Shown here: piece by piece, positions 6,372 to 42,187 of the stretch | Numbering within the stretch: position 1 is the first letter of the stretch | Layout of the letters: each line of letters opens with the position of its first letter | IMG/VR virus record: IMGVR_UViG_3300015261_000001 | Span: 62,001 to 126,000 of that record | DNA from: a virus | Direction: 5' to 3' (one strand) | Length of the DNA stretch: 64,000 nucleotides | Notes under the pieces: generated by a model | What the model saw: only the letters and a program-made list of their open reading frames with translations | Told to the model about the DNA's origin: nothing | Database searches by the model: none | Program-made: the position numbers and the translations under genes

Positions 6372-8216
6372 ATGACTACCGAACCAGTCAATACTTCACC
6401 AATTATCGCAAAGGTGTGTAAAAGCGCCAGTTATTCTGTCAGTCGTATTCGTAAGAGTGACTTGACTTGTGTAAAGATCACCAATATTCATGAAGACGGC
6501 AGTCGTAGCAATTCGTTTGTTCTTCGAAAGGATTATAAACAACCTTACTGGATTGTTAAGGATGGTCGTCGTCTGTTCAAACAACATAAGGACTATATCG
6601 AAGCCAGCATGTGTCGGGAATACCATGCACCTCGTGTGGAGATTCCTTTTGCAGTCAAGAAACAACTGTTTGGTGTAGCGGATCATAAAGCAACGATTCG
6701 TGATGTTTCGTTGAGTCCACATGTGTTCGGGTTGGATCAAACTCCTCCGGTTCACATTAAGCAAGAGTTTTTCAAGAAGTACGGCGAATATCAAGAGAAA
6801 GAACCGTACACCATGGCCGCCTACGACGTTGAAGGCGACATGTGGAAACCGGGTGTGCCTTTAATGATGGCCTCGGTAACTTTCAAGAAGAAAGCGTTCT
6901 TTGCAGCAAGACGCGGGTGGTATCAGGAACGTCAGGATGCGATTGACAAGACAGTCCGTTTAACCGACGAGATCATCTTAGCCAATCTCAAGGAAGCTGA
7001 AGATAAGCATCTGAAGGATCATCTTGAGCGTCGTGGTTGCACTGTTGAATACGCTTTGTTCGATACTGCTGGACAAGTAGTAGAAGCGTGCATTAATAAG
7101 TGGCATGAATGGGAACCTGATTGGGTAACCAGCTGGAACGCTACTTACGACATGGAAGCTAATGAGAAGTCGTTGCAGGATGATGGTTACGATCTGGCTA
7201 ACGTCTATTGTGATCCGGCTATTCCTCCTGAGTACCGTTCTTATCGTTTGGACCGAGGTCGTACTCACAAGACCAAGGAGGACGGAACCAGTAGCCCGTT
7301 GGAACCTCAAGAGAAGTTTCCAAGTATTCGAACCATGGCCAAATGGCAGTGGGCGGACGCAATGTCGTTCTTTGCAATCAAACGTGCTTCCTCGACAGGT
7401 AAGTTACAGGACTACACGTTGGAAGGTATTGCCAAGTACTTGAACATTCCGGGTAAGCTGTATACCGGTGCTGGCGCTCACTTGTTGCCGGGTTCTCCTC
7501 AGTGGCACCGTTACATGCAGAAGCATTGGCCTTACATCTACTCGATGTACAACATCGCAGACAACTTCGTTATTGAAGAGATCAACGAGAAAGAAAACGA
7601 CTTCTCGCTCGGTCTTCCAATGCTGTTGAAGTTCTCGGAATACTTTAACTACGTATCTCAACCGAAAACAATCAGTGACACCTTGTCATTCATTGCTCGG
7701 GACATGGGCTTCGTTTGGGGTAGTACACCGAGTAACCGAGATAAGCACTTCACTGACAGGTTGCCTACTTTGGGTAACTGGATTGCTCTACTCGATACTG
7801 AGAAGAACGCCAGTGTGGGTATGGCCTTGTTCGAAGGTCTGATGGACGTCATCAGTACAGGTCGCACAGACAGCTCTGACATCGACGTAGAGGGTGCTTA
7901 TCCTCACGCGACACTCTGTCTCAACACAAGTAACAAAACCACTCAGATCGAGGCGTACGCGATCCAAGGGGCAGACTCTGAGAAGTTCCGGGAGATCGGT
8001 GTTAACTACGCATCCAGTGCAGAGGCAAATGCAATTGGTCTGTGTCAAGCACTGTTCCGTTTCCCAGAAGCTGATCAGATTCAAGAAGTCTTCGAGAAGA
8101 TCATGATTGAGAAAGGTCAGGAAGAACTCCTGAAAGAAATCCAATCTGGTGCAAGACCTCGTAAGCCTCGTGTCAACATTGAAGAATACGACGAAGAAAT
8201 GAAAGAAGCAGCCTGA
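6372..8216 (+). CDS. DNA polymerase family B, N-terminal part (3'-5' exonuclease plus palm motif A)
   Basis: 614 residues. Exonuclease motifs are visible: Exo I A-Y-D-V-E-G (D152, E154), Exo II W-N-A-T-Y-D (N256, D260) and Exo III Y-N-I-A-D (Y393, D397). Polymerase motif A follows as D-I-D-V-E-G-A-Y-P (503-511), with D505 the expected metal ligand. The protein then ends, after a charged tail, without motif B or the DTDS motif C. Those lie in a separate gene at 40088-42187 on the opposite strand. The two products presumably assemble into one replicative polymerase. The gene is isolated on + between minus-strand virion genes and ends at a hairpin (8227-8261). Confidence 0.85.
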   Translation: MTTEPVNTSPIIAKVCKSASYSVSRIRKSDLTCVKITNIHEDGSRSNSFVLRKDYKQPYWIVKDGRRLFKQHKDYIEASMCREYHAPRVEIPFAVKKQLFGVADHKATIRDVSLSPHVFGLDQTPPVHIKQEFFKKYGEYQEKEPYTMAAYDVEGDMWKPGVPLMMASVTFKKKAFFAARRGWYQERQDAIDKTVRLTDEIILANLKEAEDKHLKDHLERRGCTVEYALFDTAGQVVEACINKWHEWEPDWVTSWNATYDMEANEKSLQDDGYDLANVYCDPAIPPEYRSYRLDRGRTHKTKEDGTSSPLEPQEKFPSIRTMAKWQWADAMSFFAIKRASSTGKLQDYTLEGIAKYLNIPGKLYTGAGAHLLPGSPQWHRYMQKHWPYIYSMYNIADNFVIEEINEKENDFSLGLPMLLKFSEYFNYVSQPKTISDTLSFIARDMGFVWGSTPSNRDKHFTDRLPTLGNWIALLDTEKNASVGMALFEGLMDVISTGRTDSSDIDVEGAYPHATLCLNTSNKTTQIEAYAIQGADSEKFREIGVNYASSAEANAIGLCQALFRFPEADQIQEVFEKIMIEKGQEELLKEIQSGARPRKPRVNIEEYDEEMKEAA

Positions 8217-8226
8217 TGCAAACATA

Positions 8227-8261
8227 CCCCTACCCATTCCCTTTGCGGGGAATGGGTAGGG
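8227..8261. terminator. Bidirectional hairpin terminator (CCCTTTGCGGGG family)
   Basis: CCCTACCCATTCC stem, loop CTTTGC, and complementary arm, between converging ends at 8216 and 8282. Confidence 0.85.
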
Positions 8262-8281
8262 AGTTATGCCGCTTGTGAAGC

Positions 8282-9355
8282 TTAGCCGCCGAAGACTTCG
8301 CCCATAGCTTTCTGGACGCTGGTCATGCGGGACAGCAGTTGCTTGAAGCACTGGCTGAGCTTGCTCGCCAACACCATCAGGCCACGCAGAGCGCCGAGTT
8401 CAGCATTCAGGTTGTCGCTACCCTTACCAGCTTCTTTACGGCTGGCAATCGCGCCTTCAACAGCTTTGATCGCAGCACCGATTTGGGACTGATGACCTTT
8501 CAGCGCGCTGTTGATCTTGTCGGCGTGGTCGATACCTTTCAGCATTTCGTCCAGCACAGTCTTGGCCTGGGAAACGTTGCTCAGGTCACGAACACCTTCC
8601 AGCTTGGTAAGCAGGGATTGATCGCCGTTGCTGCTCTTCAGTGCGCTGATCATGTCTTTGATCAACGGGCTAACGGTGGTACTGTCGGCAGCACCTTCGT
8701 CAGTCTCGTCGACGGTGGACTTGAGAACCTTCATCACGTTGATCAGCTGGTCGACTTTCTCGCTCAGTTTCTTCTTGGCCTTTTTGTTCAGCTTCGGAAG
8801 TTCGTGAGCAATCATCAGGATCGCTTTCTTCTTGTCGGCGAACGAACCTTTGTGGGCTTCGTCTGCTTCTTTCAGAATTTGATCCAGCGCCGACTTGTTG
8901 GCGTCCGCTTCATGACCCAGAGCCTTCAGAGTCGAGATCTGCTTGGCCAGGGTTTTGTCAGCTTCGGCTTCAGAAGAACCGCCGTTTTCGAACACAGCCA
9001 GTTCGGCCTTGCCGTCGGTGATTGCTTTCTTGGTATCAGCAGCCAGTTTCGGCGCGTCACGTTTGAAGAAGAAGTCCCAGAGGGATTTGAACATCTTCTT
9101 CACGTATTCGAACGCTTCGTTCAGGCCGGTACCGATCGAGCTGAAGAAACCTTCGTTACCAGCAACACGGGCGCTGACCTGACCGCTGGCGCTGAGAACG
9201 CCTTGCATGTAGGTTTGCGCCTGAGTCAGGCTTTCAGTACCTTCAACGTTGGCCAGGGTGTCGTTCAGTGCGTCGAAAATGATTTCAACGTGCGGAACAT
9301 CAGGAACGTCGTAACCTTCCCCAGCGCCTTCTTCGAGAATAATCTCATCCATCAT
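8282..9355 (-). CDS. Internal head (inner body) protein with cleavable propeptide
   Basis: 357 residues, paralogue of the gene at 9380-10423. Both propeptides share P-H-V-E-I-x-F-x-A-L-N-D-T and E-S-L-T-Q-A-Q. Cleavage is predicted after E68 in G-N-E-G-F-F-S (66-72). The mature part starts with an aromatic amphipathic helix (YVKKMF, WDFFFK) and continues as long Lys/Ala/Glu/Leu-rich helices, probably coiled coil. Known phiKZ inner-body proteins behave this way. The ATG follows AAGGA. The internal GAGE at residues 10-13 is less likely to be used because it lacks the GFFS context. Confidence 0.75.
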   Translation of the reverse strand: MMDEIILEEGAGEGYDVPDVPHVEIIFDALNDTLANVEGTESLTQAQTYMQGVLSASGQVSARVAGNEGFFSSIGTGLNEAFEYVKKMFKSLWDFFFKRDAPKLAADTKKAITDGKAELAVFENGGSSEAEADKTLAKQISTLKALGHEADANKSALDQILKEADEAHKGSFADKKKAILMIAHELPKLNKKAKKKLSEKVDQLINVMKVLKSTVDETDEGAADSTTVSPLIKDMISALKSSNGDQSLLTKLEGVRDLSNVSQAKTVLDEMLKGIDHADKINSALKGHQSQIGAAIKAVEGAIASRKEAGKGSDNLNAELGALRGLMVLASKLSQCFKQLLSRMTSVQKAMGEVFGG

Positions 9356-9379
9356 TGCAGTCCTTGTAAAGGAGGTTGA

Positions 9380-10423
9380 TTACAGGCCGAAAACGTTCGG
9401 GATGGATTTGTTGATGGACTTGGCGTCCTCCATCATGCGTTTCAGCAACTGACTGTGTTTAGCAGCGAGAGCCATTGCTTCACGCAGACCGGTGAGCGTT
9501 TTGTTGGCGTCTTTCTTCTTGTCAGCATCGCCTTCGGCGATACGGCCCACGTACTGCTCGGTGGACTCGATGGCGTGCTTGAACTCACCTTCCTTGTCGG
9601 AGATGCTTTTGACATCTTTCTCGATTTCGGTGATGAAGCCGGTGATGTCATCCAGGAAAATACGAGCCTTCGGCAGGTCTTCCAGATCGCGGATGCTTTC
9701 CAGGTACTGGAGGCCTTTGGTCAGGTCGCCGTGTTCTTCTTTCAGAACGTTGACGTAATGGGTGTACTCGACGGTGTCGAGAGCCTTGACCTTTGCTTCA
9801 GCCTGACTGGCCAGAGCAACCAGAGCTTTGAAGATCTCGATCAGGTTACCCAGTTTGTGGGTAAGCACTTTACGAGCCTTCTCGTTCTTCTTGCCCACTT
9901 TACCAGCAGCATGTTCGATGTCGCTTTTGCTGGAAGCCTTGCTGATCTCTTCCGACAGTTCGTCCAGCTCTTTGCTGTCAGAGCTGCCTGCTTTCAGAGC
10001 ACCAACGGCACGGCTCAGGCTGGCCTTGGCTTTGCCGACGTCGCCAATAGCCAGATCGGCTTTAGCTGCTGCGGCGCTTGCTTTCGCTTCTTTGGCCAAA
10101 GCCGGTGCTTCTTTCTTGAAGAAGAAACCCCAGATGGCGGCGAACATCTTCTTGATGTAATCCCAGGTCTTCTGGGCACCGCTGCCGATAGCCGAGAAGA
10201 AACCTTCCATACCGTTTACACGGTCGGCGTTGGTGATCAGGCCGTTGGCTGCCAGGATCGGTTGCATGTACAGCTGAGCCTGGGTCAGGCTTTCAACGCC
10301 GGTGACGTTTTCGATGGTGTCGTTCAGCGCTTCGAAAGCGATCTCGACATGAGGACCATCTGGCAAACCTTCCAGTTGTTCTTCGGCCGGATCCATTTCA
10401 ACAGTAACGGTAACTTCGCTCAT
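9380..10423 (-). CDS. Internal head (inner body) protein with cleavable propeptide
   Basis: 347 residues, tandem paralogue of the protein at 8282-9355. The propeptide is residues 1-73 and ends in G-M-E (71-73), followed by G-F-F-S-A-I-G. After the cut the sequence again shows YIKKMF and W-G-F-F-F-K-K-E-A-P, then highly helical Ala/Lys-rich sequence to the end. The 24-base spacing to the next gene and GAGG before the ATG suit co-expression at high level. The role is assumed from phiKZ: ejected or structural protein of the inner body. Confidence 0.75.
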   Translation of the reverse strand: MSEVTVTVEMDPAEEQLEGLPDGPHVEIAFEALNDTIENVTGVESLTQAQLYMQPILAANGLITNADRVNGMEGFFSAIGSGAQKTWDYIKKMFAAIWGFFFKKEAPALAKEAKASAAAAKADLAIGDVGKAKASLSRAVGALKAGSSDSKELDELSEEISKASSKSDIEHAAGKVGKKNEKARKVLTHKLGNLIEIFKALVALASQAEAKVKALDTVEYTHYVNVLKEEHGDLTKGLQYLESIRDLEDLPKARIFLDDITGFITEIEKDVKSISDKEGEFKHAIESTEQYVGRIAEGDADKKKDANKTLTGLREAMALAAKHSQLLKRMMEDAKSINKSIPNVFGL

Positions 10424-10449
10424 GGTAAAACCTCTGTGTGGGCTGATGC

Positions 10450-11076
10450 TCAGACTTGCATCAGTTTGTTGAAGTATTGGGTAACGTTTTCTTTGCCCAG
10501 ACGATTGAGGTCCTTAATGGCGTAAGTCACGTCGACGAGCTTGTTCAGCTCATGGCGGCGGGGCCAGCTGTTGGCGATCATCGTCAGCAGCGTCATGTAG
10601 TTGCGGTAGGTGCGGATGTGCTCGATTGGGTACTGCTTATCGAGGTCCTTCACGAAACGGAAAGCAGTACCATCAGAGAAGATGGTTTTGTTTTCACGGA
10701 TCTGGTTGAGCAGGTAGTCGGTCACCACGACGTACTTGTCGAACTCCAGCTTCAGCGTGTTGCCGATGGTGTCGATGAAGGTGATCTGTTCCTGGATGCG
10801 AGCGTCGCTGTCTTTGAAACCCAGCTCACCGCTGAGGTATTGAAAGTGGCGGGCAATCCGCGCCTTCATTACGTCAGTGGCAACATCGCCTTTGGAGTTG
10901 GTCATACGGCCGATGCCAATAACGTCTGGCACTTCATCCAGGCTCGGTTGAGCAGGAGGAGTAGGGGAAGCCGCTTTGGTGGCCCCCTCGTTCTTCTTGC
11001 CACCAGTGGCAGGTGCTTTAACACTGCCTTCGAGGTTTTCTTCCTCGGGTGCTACGTAGTCGTCAGGGTTGCTCAT
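10450..11076 (-). CDS. Probable virion protein, unknown function
   Basis: 208 residues. The first about 60 residues are disordered-looking (Pro, Ala, Thr, Glu, Lys rich); the rest is a helical globular domain without recognised motif. Its position between the inner-body paralogues and the 577-residue protein corresponds to a virion-protein cluster in phiKZ (around gp82-gp88 by order). The ribosome-binding AAAGGG lies inside an 18-base perfect palindrome directly before the ATG. Confidence 0.6.
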   Translation of the reverse strand: MSNPDDYVAPEEENLEGSVKAPATGGKKNEGATKAASPTPPAQPSLDEVPDVIGIGRMTNSKGDVATDVMKARIARHFQYLSGELGFKDSDARIQEQITFIDTIGNTLKLEFDKYVVVTDYLLNQIRENKTIFSDGTAFRFVKDLDKQYPIEHIRTYRNYMTLLTMIANSWPRRHELNKLVDVTYAIKDLNRLGKENVTQYFNKLMQV

Positions 11077-19910: not shown

Positions 19911-21920
19911 TTACGACACCGCCAAACTGAAGAAGCACTCGAGCGGACTGCCTTGACGGTTGACCATACGGAAGGTCTTGATCTCGTTCAGTACGTTCTG
20001 TTGCTTCTCGTAGATCATCAACATGCCAGCGCCGCGTCCATTGATAGCGTCAGCATAGTTGGAGAAGTATTTCGGAACATCGCCGTTAGCCAGCGAGCAA
20101 TCGTAATTGCTTGGATCACGGGTCACGGTGGAGAACAGCACGTTTTCCACATGCACCATGTTGATACCACGAATTTCTTGGTTGATCAAACTCCAATATT
20201 CAGCCCACACCTCACCGAAGATCTTCGGCGTGACGGTTTGTGCTTTCCACGCAGAGTTGCGCTTATTGTAAGTAATGAAGTTTTCCACACGAGCCCGGTG
20301 CATGTCCAGGTCTTCGCGGGTATACGGCAGGGTGAAGATTGGCGAAGTGGTGTTCCAACCACTCAAGTCGATCGAGATGTGTTTCTTCCCTTCGGCTTGC
20401 CAACCACGCTCCAGCACGTACTTCAAGAACTCCAACGAGAAACACGCATTACGCGACGAGACCGAAGTCCGTGCCGCGTGTTGTTGCACCGTGGTACCGC
20501 CCATCATGATGTCTTCGATCTGATAGCGGAATGTCACTTCCTGGAAGTACGGCAGCTTATCCAGACTCAGGTTATCCAGCATATCGAGCGAACGAATGTC
20601 AGACAGCACATTCACAATGTCCGCTTTAAGGATGAGATCCGAGCCCGGTGTACATACCTCAGCCTGAAGGAAGATTTCATCACCGTTGGAGCTGATGATG
20701 TTCTTGTCCTTGACGTGTGGTACGAACTGCCGTGTAACTGCGTTCCGAATGAAGTGCTTCGTCGACAACATACCCTGACCCATCGGGTTACAGATAGCCG
20801 TCGCCGAGTACATACCCACGTTTGCACTCTTACGCATCATCACGTTGTAGGGGACAGCCGACTTCAGCATACCGTAACAAACGCCGCACGGCACGCCTGA
20901 AAGATGGCTATTGCAGTAAGCGATGCTACGAACGTGAATTACTTCCCCCGCCTTAATATTCCACATAGTTTGGCTATCGATCAATTCCAGGCGCCCATCT
21001 TCGAACCGACGGAACTTACCTTGAAGGGATGACGCCATCGCGGCGTTAGCAACTTTGATCGGCACACACAGCTGAGTACCACAATCCCATTCGTGGTTAA
21101 TCGAGCTAATTACAGAGGTCAAAATGTGTGCTTTACGGTGGAACCACTCGGAGTCTTTCAGCGCCTTACCGTTGTTGGTCAGAGCTTTACCCGCAGCGTT
21201 ACGCTCACCCAAAGAGTCAGCCAGGTTGGTGATCCCGTGTGCATACGGAACCATTACCGCGTTCGGCATGATGGCGTTACTCAAGTCAAACACACCACCA
21301 CGAATTTCCGTGGTTTGATATGCTTGGTTGATACTCACGCCACCAGTACGCGCCAGCAGTGCAACTGTGTTCTGACCCAATGAGGGGGCTTCACGGATGT
21401 ACGAAGAGAACAACTCTTCACCTTCGTCGATGGTGATCTTCTTGGCCAGGATGTCATCCCGAATAGCCATGATACCATCATCTTCCATGAACTCTGCCAC
21501 AGACTCAGCAGTCGCAGAAATTGCCGACTGCTCGCTCATTACCACGATCAGGTTGTTGAGCTTGTTTTGCCAGATGTGAATCAACATCTTGATCCCGTCA
21601 ATTTCAACGGGGTCGTGTTTCGTTGGCATGATCCGTCTTAAGAACGTGTTGATGGGGATAGCGTTAGTGTTGTCGTCATAAACGATTTCCTTCGCGCCCT
21701 CCACCACGTTCGACGGGATCAACTCATCTACCGAGTAGGGAACGTCGTTATAACGACGGTGGATAATTAAACCCACCCACGTCAACATCAACACGAACGT
21801 ATCACTCAGTGCTGTAGCGCCGGAGTCATCAGTGACCTCCACCAGCATCCGAGTGCCTCGCCAACTCAACATCTTTTCTTCTGGACAATTGGCGAACTCG
21901 CGGAGATTGAGTTTAATCAT
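19911..21920 (-). CDS. Non-virion RNA polymerase beta'-like C-terminal subunit (gp74-like)
   Basis: 669 residues. R-T-G-G-V-S-I-N-Q-A-Y-Q-T-T-E-I-R-G-G (191-209) and the following N-A-V-M-V-P-Y-A-H-G-I segment match the bridge-helix/trigger-loop region. C280, C336, C345 and C348 (in C-G-V-C-Y-G) form the beta' zinc site, followed by Y-S-A-T-A-I-C-N-P-M-G-Q-G, equivalent to the helix before FHIGG. It overlaps the beta C gene by ATGA, so the two subunits are translationally coupled. In phiKZ the same pair is gp71-73/gp74 of the nvRNAP, which transcribes middle/late genes in the phage nucleus. Confidence 0.85.
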   Translation of the reverse strand: MIKLNLREFANCPEEKMLSWRGTRMLVEVTDDSGATALSDTFVLMLTWVGLIIHRRYNDVPYSVDELIPSNVVEGAKEIVYDDNTNAIPINTFLRRIMPTKHDPVEIDGIKMLIHIWQNKLNNLIVVMSEQSAISATAESVAEFMEDDGIMAIRDDILAKKITIDEGEELFSSYIREAPSLGQNTVALLARTGGVSINQAYQTTEIRGGVFDLSNAIMPNAVMVPYAHGITNLADSLGERNAAGKALTNNGKALKDSEWFHRKAHILTSVISSINHEWDCGTQLCVPIKVANAAMASSLQGKFRRFEDGRLELIDSQTMWNIKAGEVIHVRSIAYCNSHLSGVPCGVCYGMLKSAVPYNVMMRKSANVGMYSATAICNPMGQGMLSTKHFIRNAVTRQFVPHVKDKNIISSNGDEIFLQAEVCTPGSDLILKADIVNVLSDIRSLDMLDNLSLDKLPYFQEVTFRYQIEDIMMGGTTVQQHAARTSVSSRNACFSLEFLKYVLERGWQAEGKKHISIDLSGWNTTSPIFTLPYTREDLDMHRARVENFITYNKRNSAWKAQTVTPKIFGEVWAEYWSLINQEIRGINMVHVENVLFSTVTRDPSNYDCSLANGDVPKYFSNYADAINGRGAGMLMIYEKQQNVLNEIKTFRMVNRQGSPLECFFSLAVS

Positions 21921-24205
21921 TGCGCCGCTCCTTCATTCATGGCTTCTACCAGCGCTTTGGGGATCGCTAATGGTTCAGCTGGCAAACTATCTACCATCTG
22001 ATCCATCGTGTTGTAGGCTCGGTCCAGAGACGTCTCACGACGGTCTGTAGCGCGTTCCCGACGCAGAGTATAGCCGGAGTCCGACATCATGCTGAGCGAC
22101 ATCTTCAACGCACGGTTGCTGAGGTACTCTTCAGGCTTGATGAGTTGGTTAACGTTGAACGGGTCATCTGCACGGATAAGCCGTCTGGTAGCTTTTGCAC
22201 GGTTCTCTGGCGAATACGCCAAGGCAAGATGTTTCTCAGCTTCTTGCCCACCGGCTTGGCTAACTTCCAGACGCAGTTCAGTTTCACCCGAGTTCTTGTT
22301 GCCCTTGTCCGTCATTGGTGTAGCGTACTTGCCACTGTCGTTCATCTTGGCAGGCATACCGAACAAGTTAGACTTGGGCATGCTTTGCGCACTCATGTCT
22401 GCACCGAACTTGTCGAGCAGCATGATATCCTGATAACTGATCAAGATGGGGTTGGTGGTTTCTACGCGTTCGCCCAACGAGTTAACGAACATGGCTTTCT
22501 GCGGTTTGTAGCTGTACTTCTTCCGCAAGGCGTTAATGATGTTCACGCCGAACAGCTTGGTGTTACTGATCACATGCACAGAGATCTTGTTCTTGCAAAC
22601 GTAATCAACGTGTTCCTGCTTCTCTTCGTCAGTGACCAGAGCCATCTTGACAGTTTCCGCAAATTCTGGGAAACCGGTCTCGTAGAACTCCATCAGTTTG
22701 AAGTAGGCGGTTTTGTAGTCGCCCAAACGACGCAGGTGTTTCACTTCACGGTGCACGTTCATGTTGACGAAGTTAATACTCAACTCCATCAGCATCGAGA
22801 AGATCTGACGACGGAAAGCTGGCGTGTTGTTCACAATGAACTCAGCCCGAGTACCGTCTGGATAGCACGGTGCTTCGTGGTCTTCGATGATCAGAACGTT
22901 AACGCCCTTGTCACCGTTGAGACCGGCATACTTCCACTTCACACGACCCGCTACCGATTGCTTCAGTTCGATGTGAATGTTCCAGTCTTTCAGCTTCTCG
23001 CGTTTCTCTGCACGGCTCAACGGGTTGATCTTGCCGATGCCGTTGCGGGTGTAGTTACCATAAGCGTTCCGAATGAAGGTATCCAACTCCTTACTGATCG
23101 GAATTTCGTTGTTACGGGCCGCGTGGGTTTTCATCTCGTACCAACGAGTGACGTTATTCCACATTTCGTTTTGTTTCTTCTCGTGGCGATCGAGCATGGT
23201 GTTGTGACGCTGCTCGATGTAATCAGTACCACGATTGTTGGAACGGTTCTTCATCCGTTCAGACTTCACAGTCACCGACATTACGACGGCGTCACGTGGA
23301 GCATAGAACAGTTTGTCGTAGGTCAGGTCAGGTTCACGCAGCGACTTCTTGGTCAACGATACGAGAGCGTTTTCCTTGATGCGGCGGCGGAAGCCCATGA
23401 CGATACCGTCGTTACGAATTTCTTCACCAGCTTGCGGGAACGGCGATGGGTTCTCGTCGGTTCCGTACAGCATCAGTGGGATCCACTCGTCTTCGTTATA
23501 CCCGAAGCTACGATCATGTTTAAACATGCAACGCGACCGCTCCGCAAAGGAGCGGGTCATAATCACACCGTCCTCCTCAGTGCGATAGTCCGATAGCGCC
23601 GCTACCAGAGTTGGCATTGCAAAACACCACTCGCCGTTCTTGCTGATTCGAGGACTGCGGGCAAATACAGTACCCTTAGGGAATGTTGCCCCTTTCTTCA
23701 GCTTGCGCATGACGTCTTGGTCATACACGTACTCAAAACCGACGTAAGTGTTTTGCGTGTTGTACTTTGGCAGCTCGAGAATGTCGTAAGCATTCTTTTC
23801 GTCATTCTTATACAGAATGCGAATTGTGTTCCAGTCGTCTGTGAGCTTTTCCGGGTCCAGACTGTTGACGTAGAAGATTTCCTCTACTTCCATGTTGGCT
23901 GGAGCTTCGATGCGCCGTGCAGTCTTGGCGTACTGGAACTCAAACCCCGTAACCATCATCCGTTCGCCCGCCCCCTTCGTTGGCACGGACTTTGGAATCA
24001 TGTTACCAGCCATGTACAAACGACCCGCACTACTGTTCCAAGGGAACAGAATGAGGTTGTTACTGATCCCCACTAGTGCAGGGTGAATCTGGTTCTCACC
24101 GCACTCGTATTTGTACTTTACGGTCTCGGCGATTTCCGTTAACTCGAAGTCAAATGGTGTCTTGCCTTCGGTTTCAATCTCATTATCGCTCATGTTATCG
24201 CTCAT
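21917..24205 (-). CDS. Non-virion RNA polymerase beta-like C-terminal subunit (gp71-73-like)
   Basis: 762 residues. T-E-E-D-G-V-I-M-T (209-217) corresponds to the NYEDSI region, G-L-N-G-D-K-G-V (428-435) to the conserved GRHGNKG, D-G-T-R-A-E-F-I-V-N (450-459) to the switch/flap segment before the clamp, and S-G-E-T-E-L-R-L-E (639-647) to G-E-M-E-V-W-A-L-E. The rest of beta is not in this window and is expected from a gp123-like gene elsewhere. GGAG lies before the ATG; a second near-identical MSDN repeat at the N-terminus is odd. It lies behind an early-type promoter motif at 24245-24264. Confidence 0.85.
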   Translation of the reverse strand: MSDNMSDNEIETEGKTPFDFELTEIAETVKYKYECGENQIHPALVGISNNLILFPWNSSAGRLYMAGNMIPKSVPTKGAGERMMVTGFEFQYAKTARRIEAPANMEVEEIFYVNSLDPEKLTDDWNTIRILYKNDEKNAYDILELPKYNTQNTYVGFEYVYDQDVMRKLKKGATFPKGTVFARSPRISKNGEWCFAMPTLVAALSDYRTEEDGVIMTRSFAERSRCMFKHDRSFGYNEDEWIPLMLYGTDENPSPFPQAGEEIRNDGIVMGFRRRIKENALVSLTKKSLREPDLTYDKLFYAPRDAVVMSVTVKSERMKNRSNNRGTDYIEQRHNTMLDRHEKKQNEMWNNVTRWYEMKTHAARNNEIPISKELDTFIRNAYGNYTRNGIGKINPLSRAEKREKLKDWNIHIELKQSVAGRVKWKYAGLNGDKGVNVLIIEDHEAPCYPDGTRAEFIVNNTPAFRRQIFSMLMELSINFVNMNVHREVKHLRRLGDYKTAYFKLMEFYETGFPEFAETVKMALVTDEEKQEHVDYVCKNKISVHVISNTKLFGVNIINALRKKYSYKPQKAMFVNSLGERVETTNPILISYQDIMLLDKFGADMSAQSMPKSNLFGMPAKMNDSGKYATPMTDKGNKNSGETELRLEVSQAGGQEAEKHLALAYSPENRAKATRRLIRADDPFNVNQLIKPEEYLSNRALKMSLSMMSDSGYTLRRERATDRRETSLDRAYNTMDQMVDSLPAEPLAIPKALVEAMNEGAAQ

Positions 24206-34004: not shown

Positions 34005-35627
34005 TTAGCTCACCAGTGGTGTTTGCATGAGCAATGTGTTCAGGTTCATCAAGTTAGTCGCTGTTTGACCGGCGTACTTGCTGACCTTGAATGGGGTGTT
34101 CTTGTCCAGCGTCTGGTGATGACCGAAGCTGCCATACGACTTGGCCTTGGACTCGTTGTCGAGCAAGAACAGTACGTACATTTGGTCACCGTCGAAGTCG
34201 GCGTTGTATTCACCCACACTCAAAATCGAGATCTTGATACTTTCGTCTTCGAGATCACGATTCACTTTCAAGAAGTTGCCACGTCGACTCAAGTACTCAA
34301 TCGACGGGTTACGACCAGCTTGAACAATACACTTACGGTTTACTTCAACATCTCTGAAGAATGCGTCGATCTCAGGTACGATCTCGTACGCTGCTCTCGC
34401 AATCATCTTCCGTGCACCGATCGGGGTAAACCCTAAGCGGTACAGATAGCTGGTGATTGGAATCTCCAGGATGGTAACCGTCATCTTCCACGGCATGATG
34501 ATCTCGTCACCATGGATGATACCGGTTTGTGAAGTAATTACCGAACGACCCGTGAATGGAACTGGGCCGGCGCAGACGTGCTTACGGTTGATACCGGGTT
34601 TGTTGAACAACGCTTTCGGGTTGTTGACCATGCGGAACTGGTCTGCCAACGCCACCAGGTTTTTGCCGGTGATGTCGATGTTCTTTTGCAGATCACGTTT
34701 AGTCATTTTGTAACAACTATTCGATTTCTGCGTATCGGCGATGGCGTGGTACAACTTTGCCGTTTCTGGATGGTGCTGGTAGGACAGAACTTCTTTGCCA
34801 GTCTTTTCCAACACTGTACAGTAACGACTTGGAACTTTCATGTAATCGCAGAAAGCCAAATGCTTGTAGCTGTAATAGAAGTCCAGGATCTGCTGGCCCT
34901 CATTACGGTATTTCGTCCAGCGAGCACCATTGCCAATCAGCAGGTACTCCATGATCCGGTCACAGTTGTCGTAGAACGAGTTCAGGTTGATCTCGTCGAT
35001 ATTGAGTTCTGTGAGCATCTGAGTCATGGCCATATTGGAACCATTGCGGTTCTTTTTCTGGGTGGCTCGGTATGCAGGGTCAATGAAGTAACGGGCTACA
35101 CCAATCTTGGGACTGGGGTTGCCGATGGTGATGTTGTTGAAGAATGTGGAGAAGAAGCCGAGGTTGACAAACTTCTTCACGCCTTCGGGACAGCGCAACC
35201 AAATACGAGTGTCTTCGCCTTGGTCGAGGAACACTTCCGCTTTTGTACCACAACGCGGACATTCACGATCACTACCTTGAAGGTAGTTGCCTTTCATATG
35301 ACCACATTGACACTTGGCTACCGTATCGAAGGAATTGCCTTCAAACTCCATACGGGTCAAACGACTGAGTGCTTCGCGATCTTCTTCGAGGTTAAAGTCG
35401 AAGTCATTCAGGTACGCATGTTTCAGACGACTGACGTCGTGCAGGTAGTTGTAATCTTCGAAGTCGGGGTACAAGGGTTGCGAGAATGCTGGGTCGTCTT
35501 CGAGCGAATATGGGAGGTTTGAAGCATACCCCATAAACCACTTCATCGGATCCAGAGCTTCCTCGCTGTACTTTGTCAGCGCGTTCACGGCCAACAAGTT
35601 ACTCGGAGTTAATTCTGGGAATAGCAT
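34005..35627 (-). CDS. Non-virion RNA polymerase beta'-like N-terminal subunit (gp55-like)
   Basis: 540 residues from ATG at 35627, which has GGAG ten bases upstream; longer in-frame starts run through the hairpin and into the chimallin gene. N-terminal zinc site C106-x-C108 and C123-x-x-C126; F-T-G-R-S-V-I (358-364) matches the conserved GRSVI of beta'; N-A-D-F-D-G-D-Q-M (475-483) is the catalytic magnesium loop. The protein stops about 55 residues later, so the bridge helix and jaw must come from the gp74-like subunit. phiKZ gp55 directly follows gp54 (chimallin), as here. Confidence 0.9.
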   Translation of the reverse strand: MLFPELTPSNLLAVNALTKYSEEALDPMKWFMGYASNLPYSLEDDPAFSQPLYPDFEDYNYLHDVSRLKHAYLNDFDFNLEEDREALSRLTRMEFEGNSFDTVAKCQCGHMKGNYLQGSDRECPRCGTKAEVFLDQGEDTRIWLRCPEGVKKFVNLGFFSTFFNNITIGNPSPKIGVARYFIDPAYRATQKKNRNGSNMAMTQMLTELNIDEINLNSFYDNCDRIMEYLLIGNGARWTKYRNEGQQILDFYYSYKHLAFCDYMKVPSRYCTVLEKTGKEVLSYQHHPETAKLYHAIADTQKSNSCYKMTKRDLQKNIDITGKNLVALADQFRMVNNPKALFNKPGINRKHVCAGPVPFTGRSVITSQTGIIHGDEIIMPWKMTVTILEIPITSYLYRLGFTPIGARKMIARAAYEIVPEIDAFFRDVEVNRKCIVQAGRNPSIEYLSRRGNFLKVNRDLEDESIKISILSVGEYNADFDGDQMYVLFLLDNESKAKSYGSFGHHQTLDKNTPFKVSKYAGQTATNLMNLNTLLMQTPLVS

Positions 35628-35663
35628 TAAAAGAAACTCCAAAAAATACAAAAGGGGCATAAA

Positions 35664-35691
35664 GGTTAGGGAGCCCGAAGACTCCCTAACC
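35664..35691. terminator. Hairpin between chimallin and beta' N genes
   Basis: GGTTAGGGAG and CTCCCTAACC with an 8-base loop, 10-bp stem, in the leader of the beta' gene. Partial termination here would set a high chimallin to polymerase ratio. Confidence 0.7.
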
Positions 35692-35716
35692 CCTATTCCG
35701 TTACAACTTCTACAGC

Positions 35717-37720
35717 TTAGCCGAAAGCGACGCCGCTGCCGAACACACCCATTGCGTTCAGGTTGTTCATGTTGTTGCTGCCCACAGAAGCGTGGGTGGC
35801 CAGGCCGGCACCTGGAGCGTAAACCAGTTGGTTCGGACGGAAGCTGGCGATGGTGTTGGCCACGTTCAGAGTACCGATCGAATCCAGGGTTTCGCCGATC
35901 AGAGCCATCAGGTTTGGATCCCAGACGCACGACTGAGCGAAGCTGTTGATATGGACGTTACCGTCGAAGATCGACTGGTTCAGTTCCATACGCAGTTTCT
36001 GGCAGCGCGCCTTGAAGTCTTCCTGAGTTTGGCCGTACTGGATGGACAGGTAGTTCATGATGGACTGTTGGCCACCTTTACCCTTGACGTGACCGAGCAG
36101 CATCTCGTCGACTTCCAGCGTGTTCAGCTCTTTGTTGCCGAGCTTGGCCAGGCCGTTGACCACGATCATCTGCGTGCGGTGCAGCGCAGGCTTGTCGATG
36201 GTCCAACCGGTGTTGTTGTTGATGTTGCGTTGCAGCAGTTCCGAGAACTTGTTGCCGGACATTGCGTCCAGGACCGCGACCATGGTGCGAATTTCTTCGG
36301 TGCGGTTCTTCGACGACAGGTTCAGCAGGAAGTTGTTCACCGACGCATCAGGACCGTTGGTCACGATGTTGGTACGGAAGGTTGCGTGCTGGCTGACGTT
36401 CTGACGGATCCACTGGTTCACCAGATCGGTGTCAGTGATGGTCTTGTCGTTCAGCTGCGGACGCTGACCCATGAACACGCCTTGCAGCAGGCTGTCGATG
36501 CGCGGCTCCAGAGCGCTCAGGTTGCCACGGCTACCAACGCTCAGCTTACGCAGAGCTTCGGTGAACACGTAGTCGGTGTTGGTCGACATCAGCAGGTACA
36601 GACCGAAGAAGTACGGGAACAGACCCTGGTTGTAGTTCATCATCTCGCCAGCGATAGCCGATTCGATGGTGATCACAGGGTGCAGTGGACGGTAACCGTT
36701 CGGGTACAGACCGCCGTTCATGCCCAGGAACGCCTGGATTGCATCGGTTTGTTGCAGGTTGCCACGCGACGCAGCCAGGTTGGCCATGTGCGCTTGGTAG
36801 GTGATACCGGACAGCTGCACGGTAGCGGTAACGCGGCAGATCTCTTTCGAGTTCGCCTGCACCGACGCCGGGTTGTTGATGTTGTTGATGGTGGAAGCCA
36901 CTACTTCCATGTTGGCCGGAGACAGGGTGCCTGCCTTGGTCACACGGTCCTGGATGGCGCTGACGCGAGCTTCGGCGTAACCGTCTTTACCGAAAGGTTG
37001 CTTCGGATCTTTGAACGGCGACGGCAGAGCCATGTCGGCGGCAGGCAGGTCGTGAGTGATCTTCACCAGAACTGCGGTTTCCCACTGACCGGCCAGGTAG
37101 TTGGCCAGACGCGCAACGCGGTCTTTCGGATCGCCCGCTTCCGGGTGGTTCAGCATTTCCAGGTCGACGACGGTCATGTTGACGATCGCGACTTGTTTCA
37201 GGCCTTGTTGCTCGGCCAGCGCCATGAAGTGCTTGCGCAGGTTTTCGATGACGAACTTGTCAGCGTAGCTGGTTGGTACCAGCGGGATGCTGATCTGAGT
37301 GGCGCCCATGCCGCCGACGTTGTTGATGCGGATCGGCTCGGAGCTGATGGTCAGCTCTTTGTTGGAGAACAGCACGCCCATTACCCAGAAGGTGTTGTTG
37401 ACCAGCTTGTACAGAACCAGACCAGGCAGGATGCCGGAGATGGTGGTGGTCATCAGGTCGATGTCCGGCAGGATCGCGAGTTGCGCCTGAGGAGTAGTCG
37501 AGCCCGACAGTTGTTTGTAGTTCTTCTTCATGGCTTCTGCAACTTCGCCGACCTCGATGAGGTTGCGGTTGTCAGCAGTCATGGAAGTGGTTGCGAACAG
37601 AGATGCCAGGCCGGCGATGTCTTGATGACCTGCGAGGGAGCCGTTCTCGGCAGCTTCGTTCGAGTTGTCCCAGTTAGTGCCAGTAGTTTTGCCGGCGGCT
37701 GCGCCACGTTTTACAGTCAT
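35717..37720 (-). CDS. chmA: Chimallin, phage nucleus shell protein (gp54-like)
   Basis: 667 residues. It sits directly before the gp55-like beta' gene, as in phiKZ, with GGAG before the ATG, its own early-type promoter (37814-37833) and a following hairpin: the layout of a highly made early protein. The first about 35 residues are flexible; a hydrophobic stretch spans about 95-117; the last about 40 residues are Asn/Gly/Ala rich and extended, consistent with the linker and C-terminal segments by which ChmA protomers bind each other. No enzyme motif. Known ChmA proteins self-assemble into the lattice that encloses phage DNA. Identification is by order, size and tail character rather than motif. 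Confidence 0.65.
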   Translation of the reverse strand: MTVKRGAAAGKTTGTNWDNSNEAAENGSLAGHQDIAGLASLFATTSMTADNRNLIEVGEVAEAMKKNYKQLSGSTTPQAQLAILPDIDLMTTTISGILPGLVLYKLVNNTFWVMGVLFSNKELTISSEPIRINNVGGMGATQISIPLVPTSYADKFVIENLRKHFMALAEQQGLKQVAIVNMTVVDLEMLNHPEAGDPKDRVARLANYLAGQWETAVLVKITHDLPAADMALPSPFKDPKQPFGKDGYAEARVSAIQDRVTKAGTLSPANMEVVASTINNINNPASVQANSKEICRVTATVQLSGITYQAHMANLAASRGNLQQTDAIQAFLGMNGGLYPNGYRPLHPVITIESAIAGEMMNYNQGLFPYFFGLYLLMSTNTDYVFTEALRKLSVGSRGNLSALEPRIDSLLQGVFMGQRPQLNDKTITDTDLVNQWIRQNVSQHATFRTNIVTNGPDASVNNFLLNLSSKNRTEEIRTMVAVLDAMSGNKFSELLQRNINNNTGWTIDKPALHRTQMIVVNGLAKLGNKELNTLEVDEMLLGHVKGKGGQQSIMNYLSIQYGQTQEDFKARCQKLRMELNQSIFDGNVHINSFAQSCVWDPNLMALIGETLDSIGTLNVANTIASFRPNQLVYAPGAGLATHASVGSNNMNNLNAMGVFGSGVAFG

Positions 37721-37833: not shown

Positions 37834-37914
37834 TTTAGCCCCAGTCGCGATGAGAGTAAAATACCCCGTGATGCTATAGCAGCTTCAATAAACCCTTACC
37901 ATTTTTGAAATCGC

Positions 37915-37945: not shown

Positions 37946-37989
37946 CATTAGTGTGCTATATAATGACGACAAAATGAGAAAACACTGTT

Positions 37990-39093
37990 ATGAGAACATT
38001 GTCCTTTCCTAAGCCGTCTAATACGGTGTATCCCCGGTTACAGTTTACCGATCTGAACAACATGCGTCGTCAGACTGAGTTCAACCGCAAGGCATTCGTC
38101 AACTGGGTGCGTGATCAACCTTTTAACGTTGAGAACGAACACCTGCTGGTAGGATTGCTTCAGCAGTTAAGCATCAATGCTGAATGGGATTTGGACTACG
38201 TGGTTGGTTACACTCGCTTCCGAGCGTATTCATTGTGCACCATGTTTAAAATTACTTCCCTCCATCACGTTGGTGAAGCGACGACTCAAGGTTTCTACCG
38301 GAACAACACCCGCGAGCACTGGTGCCTCATTGAGAACACCAAGGAATACCGCATGGGTGAAGTGAGCCTGAATTCCCTGCGACCTGTTGTACCACTCTGC
38401 TCGACAGTTGTCCAGCATGGCTATTCCCACTACCTGACCCGCAGCGATCGCAGCAGCAACGCCATCGGACACCTTGCAGTGATCGGTGTTGACTTGGTTG
38501 AGCTGGCGGTGGGTTGGTGGATGTATCAACGTTTAAACCGTGAGCGCGACACCGGTCCAGGTGCTTACGTTGCCCAGTATCCGTTCGTACAGGCTCAGCT
38601 GATTCACAACCAGTTGACCGTAATCAATATGCTGTATGAGCATGTGATCGACGGTATTCCTCTCGATGTACTGATTACTGCTGACAAGGTGGTGTTCACT
38701 ACGGTGAGCGAGCAGAAGTATTACAAAAAGCTGCTGGAGTTCTTGGTGGGGTATTACTCCAGCCATCGACTACAGAACTTCGAACACTTCCTCAGCGCGA
38801 TCGACAGCATCTATAAAGAAGAGTACTTCAACTACGTTCAAGCTGGTAAGAACGGGTTGTTTGCTCAAACCATGTGGATCTGGGAACCAGCGATCCTGAA
38901 ACTGTATTCGATCTACTTGACCTTCTGTAATCAACAGAAGCATAAGGTCAGTGATATCAGTACTGTGATTGTTCGAACTGAATCGGAGCGCCTACAGAAC
39001 TTCCGCAAGGTGCCGGAGAGTTACTTCAAGGGTTGGTTCATCGAGTTGTCCGACCAAGTGTCTCAGTTGAACAAAGAAAATTTTGCACTATAA
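37990..39093 (+). CDS. Hypothetical protein divergent from chimallin
   Basis: 367 residues, rich in Tyr, His, Trp and Leu, probably helical, with a hydrophobic stretch around 150-180 that could be buried core. No catalytic motif found. It is transcribed alone from the gap shared with chimallin and is closed by a 13-bp convergent hairpin. By order it corresponds to phiKZ gp53. Virion or nucleus-associated roles cannot be told apart from sequence. Confidence 0.65.
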   Translation: MRTLSFPKPSNTVYPRLQFTDLNNMRRQTEFNRKAFVNWVRDQPFNVENEHLLVGLLQQLSINAEWDLDYVVGYTRFRAYSLCTMFKITSLHHVGEATTQGFYRNNTREHWCLIENTKEYRMGEVSLNSLRPVVPLCSTVVQHGYSHYLTRSDRSSNAIGHLAVIGVDLVELAVGWWMYQRLNRERDTGPGAYVAQYPFVQAQLIHNQLTVINMLYEHVIDGIPLDVLITADKVVFTTVSEQKYYKKLLEFLVGYYSSHRLQNFEHFLSAIDSIYKEEYFNYVQAGKNGLFAQTMWIWEPAILKLYSIYLTFCNQQKHKVSDISTVIVRTESERLQNFRKVPESYFKGWFIELSDQVSQLNKENFAL

Positions 39094-39096
39094 AGG

Positions 39097-39126
39097 CTAG
39101 AGTACGGGCTCACGCCCGTACTCTAG
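39097..39126. terminator. Bidirectional hairpin terminator
   Basis: CTAGAGTACGGGC, loop TCAC, and a perfect 13-base complement, between converging ends 39093 and 39138. Confidence 0.85.
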
Positions 39127-39137
39127 TATGACCGCTA

Positions 39138-39782
39138 TCAGTTGAAAATCACCTGACCAAGCAAACCACCTACCCATGCGAGGTCTTCACATTTTTCGGT
39201 ATAGAACAGGTGAGTGGTTTTTACGCCGGGAGGAAAAGCAATGAACGCTTCTTTTTCCACCGTCAAGGAGTCGACGTCCAGAAGACTGAACTTACTGAAC
39301 GTATCGGCTTTACTGACATAATCGGGATCCGCAGCAATCTTGATTCCCGATTCTTCATGGATCATGAAGACGTAGCCACTGTTTTTCTCGATGACTATTG
39401 TCTTGTCTTCAGGCGCCTCATCCTTCTTGATCCCGTAAATGTGGTTGAAGAAATCGTGTGTCACGACGATATCCGGTACTTCAAGACACGGGCAGCTGTT
39501 AATGAAGTTCAGCAGGTTTTGCATTTGTCCCGGACAAGTCGGGTGGAACACAAACTCGCTGAAGTTAAACCGTGTAACGATCTTGAAGTCTTCCAGCACC
39601 GTCAAATGGTTCGGGTGATGGAGTTCGTCGCAATCTTTGCGGTCTGGGAACGCCACACAGTCTGGCAAGTAACCCTCTGGATGGTTGCCAACTACCGCAA
39701 ACTCCAACCGAGTAGGTACGTGCAGAAAAAGATGCACACCTTTGCTCGGTTCATGCATGAGCGTTTTCTTTAGGTTACGCAT
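39138..39782 (-). CDS. Hypothetical protein
   Basis: 214 residues from ATG at 39782, chosen over 39794 because GAGGG sits at correct distance and overlap with the upstream gene shrinks to eight bases. Three Cys-containing segments (one P-C-L, one P-T-C-P-G) are visible, but no known motif. It is last in the unit that begins with the polymerase C-part. Confidence 0.6.
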   Translation of the reverse strand: MRNLKKTLMHEPSKGVHLFLHVPTRLEFAVVGNHPEGYLPDCVAFPDRKDCDELHHPNHLTVLEDFKIVTRFNFSEFVFHPTCPGQMQNLLNFINSCPCLEVPDIVVTHDFFNHIYGIKKDEAPEDKTIVIEKNSGYVFMIHEESGIKIAADPDYVSKADTFSKFSLLDVDSLTVEKEAFIAFPPGVKTTHLFYTEKCEDLAWVGGLLGQVIFN

Positions 39783-40080
39783 GGTTACCCTCACTCGTGT
39801 CGTTGATACCTTGAGAGAAGTCAGGATTAGGCATCACGTAACCGTCCGTAGGGATGTAGCCGCCGAACTTGCGATCAACGGCTACAGACTCTTCGTTCAG
39901 TCTGTTAATGGTCTCCATGTTCTTCTTGAACTCCGGGGTGTTGGGCGCGTCGCGACCAAATGCGTTGTATAACGCATTATTCTCCGATGCCAACCGGGCG
40001 ATCACTTTGCCGTTAGCAACAACCCGGTGGTAAGCCTGAATGACTTCAAGCCATTTTTCTTTGGGTACTGTTAATGCCAT
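39775..40080 (-). CDS. Hypothetical small protein
   Basis: 101 residues, helical first half with Asn/Ala/Lys-rich sequence, then an Asp/Asn/Gly-rich tail. GAGG lies before the ATG; seven bases after the polymerase C-part gene, so possibly an accessory of it. Unknown function. Confidence 0.55.
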   Translation of the reverse strand: MALTVPKEKWLEVIQAYHRVVANGKVIARLASENNALYNAFGRDAPNTPEFKKNMETINRLNEESVAVDRKFGGYIPTDGYVMPNPDFSQGINDTSEGNHA

Positions 40081-40087
40081 GCCTACC

Positions 40088-42187
40088 TCAATGTTCGTCA
40101 GATACCAAACGAGTCGACTTGGCGTTTAGAATGAAGACGCCCAGCGATTCAAGAATGGCGTAAATGGATTTCAAGTTCTGCGTGATCAGCTGACGAGCAT
40201 CAACAAACGGCAGGAACTCTTTAGGCACACCGCCAATACCTTCCATCATGTCTGTCGGAATGTAGATAGAAGTCAATCCATCTTTATCCTTGAGGAAGCT
40301 CATGGCTGCTGCTTTGAAGTTTTCATCCTCCAACCCATCGTAGAACTTTTGCAGTTTCTTCTTGCCGTTCAGATCAAGGTTGACTTTGTAGGCCTTATAC
40401 GGCAGTGGTGGTGCCTCGCCGTACTTGGTACTCAGTACTTCCTCCCACAGTTTGTGGTAGAAGAAGATTGATGAATCAGGCGTCTTGTAAACCGCCTCAT
40501 CCTTCACACTGTTCTTGGTTAACCAAGCCCAGCCTCCCTTGGTGATGTCTTCGTACAGGGCGCGCTCGATTTCCGCTGCTTCGTGCAGGATCTGTGGCGC
40601 GTCCAGTTTACCCCGGTTGTACAAGGTATCCAACACCTTCCGCATCAGCTTACCGGTAAAGTCTCGTACCAGTTGAGCAATCTTCACACCCCGCAAGTGA
40701 ACCCCTTTCAACTCAAGCTCAGGCTTCTTGTTCAGAATACCTTCGACCATCAGTTGCAGCGCGTAGTAGTGTTTCGACATCGAAGTCGTTACGTACGAAC
40801 CGAACAGATACTCGTTCTTCATGTTGAGGCGGAACAGATACTTGTCAGCCACGTTCATGTTGCGGCTGAGCTTGGCGTGCTGGTCAACCGCAATCGACCG
40901 AATGAAGTACGTCAACACGCCGTTGAAACGCAGTGCCGTTTGTGGGTCAGCCGCGTAATCCGCAATCACAGTGTCAACGCTGTAGATCACGGAGTCAGTG
41001 TCGGAGGTCATTACGCTTTCACGCACGATCTCTTTAACGTTGAAGATACCGGTTGGTGGAATCTTCGACTTGAAGAACACCTTGAGGAACTTCTCCCACT
41101 TCTGCTCAACCGTGATGTGGTAAGCGTTGAGGTAGTTGATAGCCGTCTTGGTTGCGCCTTCACCCAGCTTGGTAATACACAGGATCTTGTAGTCGCTGTT
41201 GGCTGGTTTGTCGTAATCGTCTTCCTTGGCGTTAGCTGGCAACGCTGGAATGTCACACCAATCGTTAAAGAACTTACGCATCAGTTCCGGGTTGGTAACA
41301 TACAACCCACGCAAGTCCAAGGTGCACAACAGAACGGTCAACTCAAGACCGGTCAAGCCCGACAAGAACAACCGGATCGCGCCAAGTTTGGTCGGGTTGT
41401 TGAAGTAGTAGTGCGCGCAGTGGGTGACCATTTCCATCACTTGGTCAACCGTTGCGTAGTTCATACCGTATTCGGTAATCACTTCTTGCATCAACGCCTG
41501 ATCGGTGTACTGTAGCTGCGCAATAAAACCTTCGATGGCCTTGTTGTACGACAGCAGCAAACGGTTACCGGTAATCAGTCGTTCGTTAATCAGGTTAGCG
41601 GTAGAGGTCAATGCACGGCAGGTACTGGTCAAGCTGGTATGCCCAGACTTGTTAAACAGCGGAGTACCCGAAGACGACATACCACCAGACTGGGCGTTGT
41701 TGAAGATCTTCAACGCGTTCTGGATTTCGTGAAACGCTACTTTGGCTTCATGGTCACCGGCGTCATGTGCCTGTGCCTTCTTGCCTTTATACAAGCGACG
41801 GAACTCAATGAACGCCTCAGTACCAGCTGCGTTTACTGATTGTTCTTCATCGGTATGGGTATAACCGACCAACGAAGGTGAAAGGTGCCAATTGTTCTGT
41901 ACTACCGTGTTGAAGAACTCACGGGTAGCCATGACCATCGGAACGCGGTCACCATGCTTGTCTTTCTTGAAAACACGGAACTTCGCTTCCTTGAATCCGT
42001 TCTCGTTTGGAACAAACACCTGAGCCATCAAATCCAGCAGGTGTTCATAGTCGTAGTTGTAAACCACCGAGAGCATGTAAGCCGCTTGGTAGTGGTACGC
42101 TTTCAAGAAGTTACGGTTAGTTTTGTAGACCGGCTCTTGAAAAGGAGACTGGTGATCAGCGGGGTCTATCTTGGCTGGAACGCCCAT
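40088..42187 (-). CDS. DNA polymerase family B, C-terminal part (palm motifs B and C, thumb)
   Basis: 699 residues. Motif B appears as E-I-Q-N-A-L-K-I-F-N-N-A-Q-S-G-G (154-169; K160 with the N-N and S-G-G that stand for Kx3NSxYG). Motif C is T-S-D-T-D-S-V-I-Y (394-402), with D396 and D398 as metal ligands. K-N-E-Y-L-F-G and G-V-H-L-R-G-V-K-I further on match the KxY and thumb segments. Exonuclease motifs and motif A are absent; they are in the gene at 6372-8216. The catalytic aspartates of one active site are therefore on two polypeptides. Residues 270-390 carry a long insertion between motifs B and C. Confidence 0.85.
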   Translation of the reverse strand: MGVPAKIDPADHQSPFQEPVYKTNRNFLKAYHYQAAYMLSVVYNYDYEHLLDLMAQVFVPNENGFKEAKFRVFKKDKHGDRVPMVMATREFFNTVVQNNWHLSPSLVGYTHTDEEQSVNAAGTEAFIEFRRLYKGKKAQAHDAGDHEAKVAFHEIQNALKIFNNAQSGGMSSSGTPLFNKSGHTSLTSTCRALTSTANLINERLITGNRLLLSYNKAIEGFIAQLQYTDQALMQEVITEYGMNYATVDQVMEMVTHCAHYYFNNPTKLGAIRLFLSGLTGLELTVLLCTLDLRGLYVTNPELMRKFFNDWCDIPALPANAKEDDYDKPANSDYKILCITKLGEGATKTAINYLNAYHITVEQKWEKFLKVFFKSKIPPTGIFNVKEIVRESVMTSDTDSVIYSVDTVIADYAADPQTALRFNGVLTYFIRSIAVDQHAKLSRNMNVADKYLFRLNMKNEYLFGSYVTTSMSKHYYALQLMVEGILNKKPELELKGVHLRGVKIAQLVRDFTGKLMRKVLDTLYNRGKLDAPQILHEAAEIERALYEDITKGGWAWLTKNSVKDEAVYKTPDSSIFFYHKLWEEVLSTKYGEAPPLPYKAYKVNLDLNGKKKLQKFYDGLEDENFKAAAMSFLKDKDGLTSIYIPTDMMEGIGGVPKEFLPFVDARQLITQNLKSIYAILESLGVFILNAKSTRLVSDEH

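What the first reader, a model, noticed from the sequence alone, without database searches (positions are those of the whole stretch)
6372..42187. Family B DNA polymerase split in trans inside the palm domain
The 6372-8216 product has Exo I-III and motif A (D505), while the 40088-42187 product has motif B and the DTDS motif C. The break falls between motifs A and B, so the two active-site metal ligands lie on separate proteins encoded about 32 kb apart on opposite strands. Motifs are read directly; that the two halves reassemble is inferred from family knowledge. I cannot say from memory whether the same split is described in close relatives.
Basis: partly seen in the sequence, partly recalled or inferred. 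Interest (0 to 1): 0.85.

Follow-up and report, generated by a model that had tools for sequence, protein, structure and literature searches.

The report
Split DNA polymerase of nucleus-forming phage
This giant bacterial virus makes its DNA-copying enzyme as two separate proteins that must join to build one active site; the sequence bears this out, but the whole phiKZ virus family does it and it has been in the literature since about 2012.

Summary
ORF 6372-8216(+) carries Exo I-III and motif A (D505). ORF 40088-42187(-) carries fingers, motif B, motif C (D396/D398), the KxY motif and the C-terminal region. In phage RB69 gp43 numbering the first half stops near residue 430-436. The second half resumes at the SPxxxxY element, which corresponds to about residue 457. 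The palm is therefore divided between two chains, and the two metal-ligand sets lie on different proteins.

AlphaFold models of each half alone are confident except for the palm pieces: motif A (453-565), the stretch after motif B (167-208) and motif C (378-401). Intact partners occur on opposite strands in 42/42 records holding both, median 31.8 kb apart. Bacillus PBS1 and Staphylococcus PALS_2 jumbo phages are also split.

The window is a phage-EL-like, chimallin-encoding jumbo phage, 69% identical to EL in both halves. The split is already published: OBP 2012 as cited for SPN3US and phiKZ, and AR9 gp132 'partial catalytic domain' with gp152. A 2021 survey described the C-half as a polymerase lacking only a fused exonuclease, and these data argue against that reading. 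Most likely mechanism: a non-covalent heterodimer with a composite active site. Assembly is untested.

The parts
6372..8216 (+). N-terminal half of the family B DNA polymerase (614 aa): N-terminal domain, 3'-5' exonuclease, first palm segment with motif A. Orthologue of EL ORF051, phiKZ gp082, SPN3US gp44; PHROG 3011
6819..6839 (+). Exo I (AYDVEGD, residues 150-156; D152, E154)
   Evidence: invariant in 30 sequences; position computed
7131..7154 (+). Exo II (SWNATYDM, residues 254-261; N256, D260)
7548..7562 (+). Exo III (YNIAD, residues 393-397; Y393, D397)
7878..7904 (+). Motif A (DIDVEGAYP, residues 503-511; metal ligand D505, steric-gate tyrosine Y510)
   Evidence: aligned with RB69 DLTSLYP (D411) and PALS_2 DFDLSSLYP
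40088..42187 (-). C-terminal half of the polymerase (699 aa): fingers, rest of palm, thumb. PF20286 divDNApol, PHROG 2927; orthologue of EL gp021, phiKZ gp050
41861..41881 (-). SPSLVGY element (residues 103-109), first recognisable family B element of this half, matching 'APNGVVY' of Pol zeta and SPNG at RB69 457
41786..41800 (-). Fingers R130...K134, putative dNTP triphosphate contacts (equivalence to RB69 R482/K486 from family knowledge)
   Evidence: invariant
41684..41722 (-). Motif B (Q156-x3-K160-x3-N164-x3-G168)
41063..41590 (-). Lineage-specific, mostly helical insertion between motifs B and C (about residues 200-375)
   Evidence: insert described in PMC7824862
40991..41005 (-). Motif C (SDTDS, residues 395-399; metal ligands D396, D398)
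40766..40774 (-). KHY (residues 472-474), equivalent of the KKxY motif
35717..37720 (-). Nuclear shell protein (chimallin) gene: context showing a nucleus-forming phage
   Evidence: PHROG 4795, 7.6e-134

Best explanation
The two genes encode the two subunits of one divergent T4-like family B replicative DNA polymerase. The first subunit supplies the N-terminal domain, the proofreading exonuclease and the palm strand with motif A. The second supplies the fingers, the remaining palm with motif C, and the thumb. The chains associate non-covalently, completing the palm sheet and joining D505 to D396/D398 in one two-metal site, so neither chain should polymerise alone. Shown here: motifs, complementary coverage of a complete PolB, co-conservation, and single-chain models whose weak spots are the palm pieces. 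Inferred: assembly, activity and replicative role.
For: Complementary motif sets with no overlap. Complementary profile coverage of RB69 gp43 (PBS1). Both single-chain models hit RB69/T4 gp43 as best PDB fold: E=3e-12 for the N-half, 3e-5 for the C-half. pLDDT below 50 is confined to palm fragments and termini. The N-half was found in 42 of 44 records holding the C-half; the two misses are contigs of about 105 kb. All 42 pairs lie on opposite strands, median gap 31.8 kb. No other DNA polymerase was found in the record. The split is also present in PBS1 and PALS_2. Literature: 'split subunit DNA polymerase' (PMC5694885; PMC5105663); [quoted passage not shown] Precedent: gp43A/gp43B of Aeromonas phages, broken between motifs A and B in 44RR (RB69 512/521), co-purify and are active in phage 25 (PMC2988022).
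Against: No complex was modelled and no biochemistry is known to me for any phiKZ-type pair. The C-half structural match is weak (TM about 0.27). The RB69 profile alignment of the C-half covers only motif C onward; motif B and fingers rest on alignment with PBS1/PALS_2 and Pol zeta. PMC7824862 describes the C-half as a polymerase with a standalone exonuclease.
Confidence: 0.9

Rival explanations
1. The C-half is a complete, divergent family B polymerase on its own, and the N-half is only a standalone proofreading exonuclease that docks onto it (the reading in Iyer et al. 2021).
For: PMC7824862 section 3.4.1. Pfam has a single whole-protein family for the C-half (PF20286). D80 in a GDR turn of the C-half is over 90% conserved.
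Against: Motif A sits on the N-half and is conserved wherever that segment is present. The C-half aligns to RB69 only from motif C on, with motif B upstream. D80 is missing in PALS_2 and not in a motif-A context in PBS1, while both keep canonical motif A on the N-half. The motif C region of the C-half does not fold confidently alone.
Confidence: 0.06
2. The halves are joined covalently: protein trans-splicing by a split intein (as in Nanoarchaeum) or RNA trans-splicing by a split intron.
For: Split inteins are known at PolB breaks (PMC4104785; MIJ3 intein in PMC6892783). Introns occur at motif A in related N-halves.
Against: No intein family hit in either protein. No Rfam intron in the window at gathering threshold, nor in the flanks of either gene at E<=1 apart from one sub-threshold CRISPR-repeat hit. 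N-half C-termini and C-half N-termini are variable and carry no conserved junction.
Confidence: 0.03
3. One or both halves are decayed remnants and another polymerase replicates the genome.
For: Both are divergent, with weak Pfam DNA_pol_B matches.
Against: Catalytic residues are invariant at 25-80% identity; both genes are open and co-retained in hundreds of phages; no alternative polymerase was found.
Confidence: 0.01

Closest known systems
Split subunit DNA polymerase of phiKZ-related phages (OBP; SPN3US gp18+gp44; phiKZ gp050+gp082; EL gp021+ORF051)
   Same: Orthologous genes, same division of motifs, same opposite-strand arrangement about 30-50 kb apart, about 69% identity to EL
   Different: Nothing essential; a new, previously unannotated virus record
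AR9/PBS1 and Staphylococcus PALS_2 jumbo phage polymerases
   Same: Two genes, exonuclease + motif A on one, motifs B and C on the other
   Different: More canonical motifs; in PBS1 and PALS_2 both genes are on the same strand, about 16-21 kb apart; PALS_2 has an HNH gene between its Exo I and Exo II coding parts
gp43A/gp43B of T4-like Aeromonas phages 25 and 44RR
   Same: Family B polymerase in two chains with motif A and motif C on different proteins; shown to co-purify and be active (phage 25)
   Different: Adjacent genes in 44RR, an independent split, break inside the fingers (RB69 512/521) rather than before them
Split PolB of Methanobacteriales and Nanoarchaeum equitans
   Same: Family B polymerase encoded in two genes
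   Different: Archaeal PolB3, attributed to inteins; Nanoarchaeum halves can be trans-spliced; no intein here
RB69/T4 gp43
   Same: Best fold match of both halves; all catalytic motifs have counterparts
   Different: Single chain; lacks the long helical insertion between motifs B and C

Membership tests
[quoted passage not shown]
   D152/E154, N256/D260, Y393/D397 conserved
[quoted passage not shown]
   D505...Y510-P511 on N-half
[quoted passage not shown]
   K160/N164/G168 on C-half; SxY replaced by AQS here, canonical in PBS1/PALS_2
[quoted passage not shown]
   SDTDS 395-399, KHY 472-474
[quoted passage not shown]
   Foldseek best hits RB69/T4 gp43: N-half 3e-12; C-half 3e-5 with low TM
[quoted passage not shown]
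   needs biochemistry
phiKZ-type split subunit DNA polymerase | Orthologues of both halves on separate genes | tested here: met
   PHROG 3011 and 2927; 278 and 292 phage records
phiKZ-type split subunit DNA polymerase | Resides in a nucleus-forming jumbo phage with multisubunit RNAP | tested here: met
   chimallin and RNAP beta-subunit PHROGs in the window
phiKZ-type split subunit DNA polymerase | Physical heterodimer | not testable with these tools
   complex prediction not available; no experiment found in the papers held
Split-intein PolB (Nanoarchaeum type) | Intein halves at the break | tested here: not met
   no intein hits in Pfam or NCBIfam

The most novel reading that the evidence does not exclude
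The break through the palm is kept because it makes polymerase assembly a control point. Each half would be made in the cytoplasm as an inactive chain and imported separately through the phage-nucleus shell, so that an active replicase forms only next to phage DNA.
Probability: 0.07. Interest if true: 0.65.

Novelty: already known. Interest (0 to 1): 0.25.

Why it matters
It corrects a published reading in which the C-half is treated as a polymerase lacking only a fused exonuclease: the exonuclease subunit carries one catalytic metal ligand, so any attempt to purify or image 'the' phiKZ-family polymerase needs both genes. The same kind of split, present in Gram-negative and Gram-positive jumbo phages, suggests an ancient break that was never repaired, a good test case for how a replicative polymerase works as two chains.

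Tried and rejected
Intein or intron joining: no hits. A second polymerase in the record: none found; the PF03104 profile does not even see the known exonuclease half, so Pfam negatives are weak. Sequence search of PDB with the N-half profile found nothing real. Alignment A1 was too diverse for a contig scan. The MAFFT alignment of C-halves with RB69 misplaced motif B because of the large insertion and was ignored. The founding paper on OBP (Cornelissen 2012) was not found in the library; it is cited through PMC5694885 and PMC5105663. A joint two-chain structure prediction could not be run, because fused or changed sequences are not accepted. Inter-chain coevolution was not attempted: about 40 paired sequences is too few.

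Full report
Observation. The 614-aa product of 6372-8216(+) matches PHROG 3011 'DNA polymerase' almost end to end. The 699-aa product of 40088-42187(-) matches PHROG 2927 'DNA polymerase' and Pfam PF20286 'Divergent Family B DNA polymerase' almost end to end. Both are about 69% identical over nearly full length to proteins of Pseudomonas phage EL, and homologues occur in 278 and 292 phage records. The window also holds a chimallin (nuclear shell) gene and RNA polymerase beta-subunit genes, so this is a nucleus-forming, phiKZ-related jumbo phage. The window is 64 kb of a 238,193-bp IMG/VR record.

Motifs. In alignments of 30 N-half and 42 C-half sequences the catalytic residues are invariant or nearly so. 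The N-half has Exo I D152/E154, Exo II N256/D260, Exo III Y393/D397 and motif A D505-x4-Y510-P511. The C-half has fingers R130/K134, motif B Q156/K160/N164/G168, motif C D396/D398, K472-H-Y474 and K494-G495. Motifs A and B look degenerate in this phage. Their identity is settled by Gram-positive relatives in the same alignments: Staphylococcus phage PALS_2 has 'CDFDLSSLYPS' at the motif A column, and PBS1/PALS_2 have 'KLLANSFYG'/'KILANSYYG' at motif B.

Where the break falls. Profile comparison puts the N-half on RB69 gp43 residues 105-430, ending just after motif A, and the C-half on 616-767, starting at motif C. Single-sequence blastp of the PBS1 halves gives RB69 106-432 and 704-835, plus a weak 527-569. 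The first family B element recognisable in the C-half is SPSLVGY (103-109), aligned with APNGVVY of Pol zeta, which corresponds to SPNG at RB69 457. The break is therefore between the motif A helix and the base of the fingers. Since the palm is discontinuous in sequence, its first strand with one metal ligand is on one chain and the motif C hairpin is on the other.

Structure. AlphaFold2 models made from window and contig sequences are good overall (mean pLDDT 76 and 79). In the N-half, apart from the termini, pLDDT falls below 50 only at 453-565, around motif A. In the C-half it does so only at 1-11, within 167-208 just after motif B, and at 378-401 around motif C. These are the pieces that would have to pack on the other chain. 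Low confidence can have other causes, including a shallow alignment, so this is supporting evidence, not proof. Foldseek finds RB69/T4 gp43 as the best solved fold for both halves, E=3e-12 and 3e-5; the second has a low TM-score.

Distribution. Of 44 contigs holding the C-half, 42 also hold the N-half; the other two are contigs of about 105 kb. All 42 pairs are on opposite strands, with a median gap of 31.8 kb against 31.9 kb here. PBS1 and PALS_2 are split too, with both genes on one strand. No fused single-chain relative was seen. No other family B, family A or PolIII-alpha gene was found in the record, with the caveat that the general Pfam profiles are weak here: PF03104 misses the known exonuclease half.

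What is already known. [quoted passage not shown] By contrast PMC7824862 describes the C-half as a divergent polymerase without a fused exonuclease and suggests a standalone exonuclease. The data here favour the first view, because motif A is on the exonuclease subunit. I did not find in the held literature a statement of the exact break or of a composite metal site, nor any biochemistry on a phiKZ-type pair.

Precedents. Aeromonas T4-like phages encode gp43A and gp43B. In 44RR the break is at RB69 512/521, also between motifs A and B, and the phage 25 proteins co-purify and polymerise (PMC2988022). Archaeal split PolBs are attributed to inteins (PMC4104785). So a family B polymerase with its metal ligands on two chains is not unprecedented.

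Mechanism. Best supported is a non-covalent heterodimer that completes the palm between chains. Shown: complementary parts, conservation, co-occurrence, and an incomplete palm in each single-chain model. Inferred: physical assembly, activity, and role as the replicase. Inteins and introns at the junction are not detected.

Verdict. The arrangement is an ordinary, published property of the phiKZ-related phages; this record is one more member. The remaining value is a sharper map of the break and a testable correction to the 'standalone exonuclease' reading.

Noticed in passing
L190 3591-3896 (PhiPA3); L189 after position 190 (Goslar); L174 after position 2949: In three relatives the N-half ORF stops at motif A ('VADLD', 'VAD*', 'LAD*'). 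PhiPA3 has a group I intron there (Rfam 71.7 bits) and Goslar a NUMOD1/HNH gene; the motif A exon follows downstream in both. In L174 a long ORF in another frame follows and the downstream exon was not seen. Mobile elements seem to target the catalytic-Asp codons.
   Followed up: partly
L013 2277-5041 (Staphylococcus phage PALS_2): An HNH homing endonuclease gene sits between the Exo I and Exo II coding parts of the N-half, so this polymerase appears to be in three ORFs.
   Followed up: partly
L179 (N-half ORF, 950-aa open frame): One metagenomic N-half carries a C-terminal acidic, helical-looking extension of more than 300 aa after the usual end.
   Followed up: no
window 41063-41590 (-): Large mostly helical insertion between motifs B and C, absent from RB69 gp43; proposed in PMC7824862 to make up for the lack of a sliding clamp.
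   Followed up: no
window 19911-24205 and 34005-35930 (-): Multisubunit RNA polymerase beta-subunit genes in the same window; the chimallin ORF at 35717-37720 partly overlaps one of them as listed.
   Followed up: no
Phage records H18, H91, H103: The N-half is misannotated in public records as 'ribonuclease', 'nucleic acid binding protein' or 'RNA polymerase beta subunit'.
   Followed up: no
window 8230-8267: Sub-threshold Rfam hit to a CRISPR repeat family just after the N-half stop codon (20.7 bits, gathering 39); possibly a terminator hairpin.
   Followed up: no
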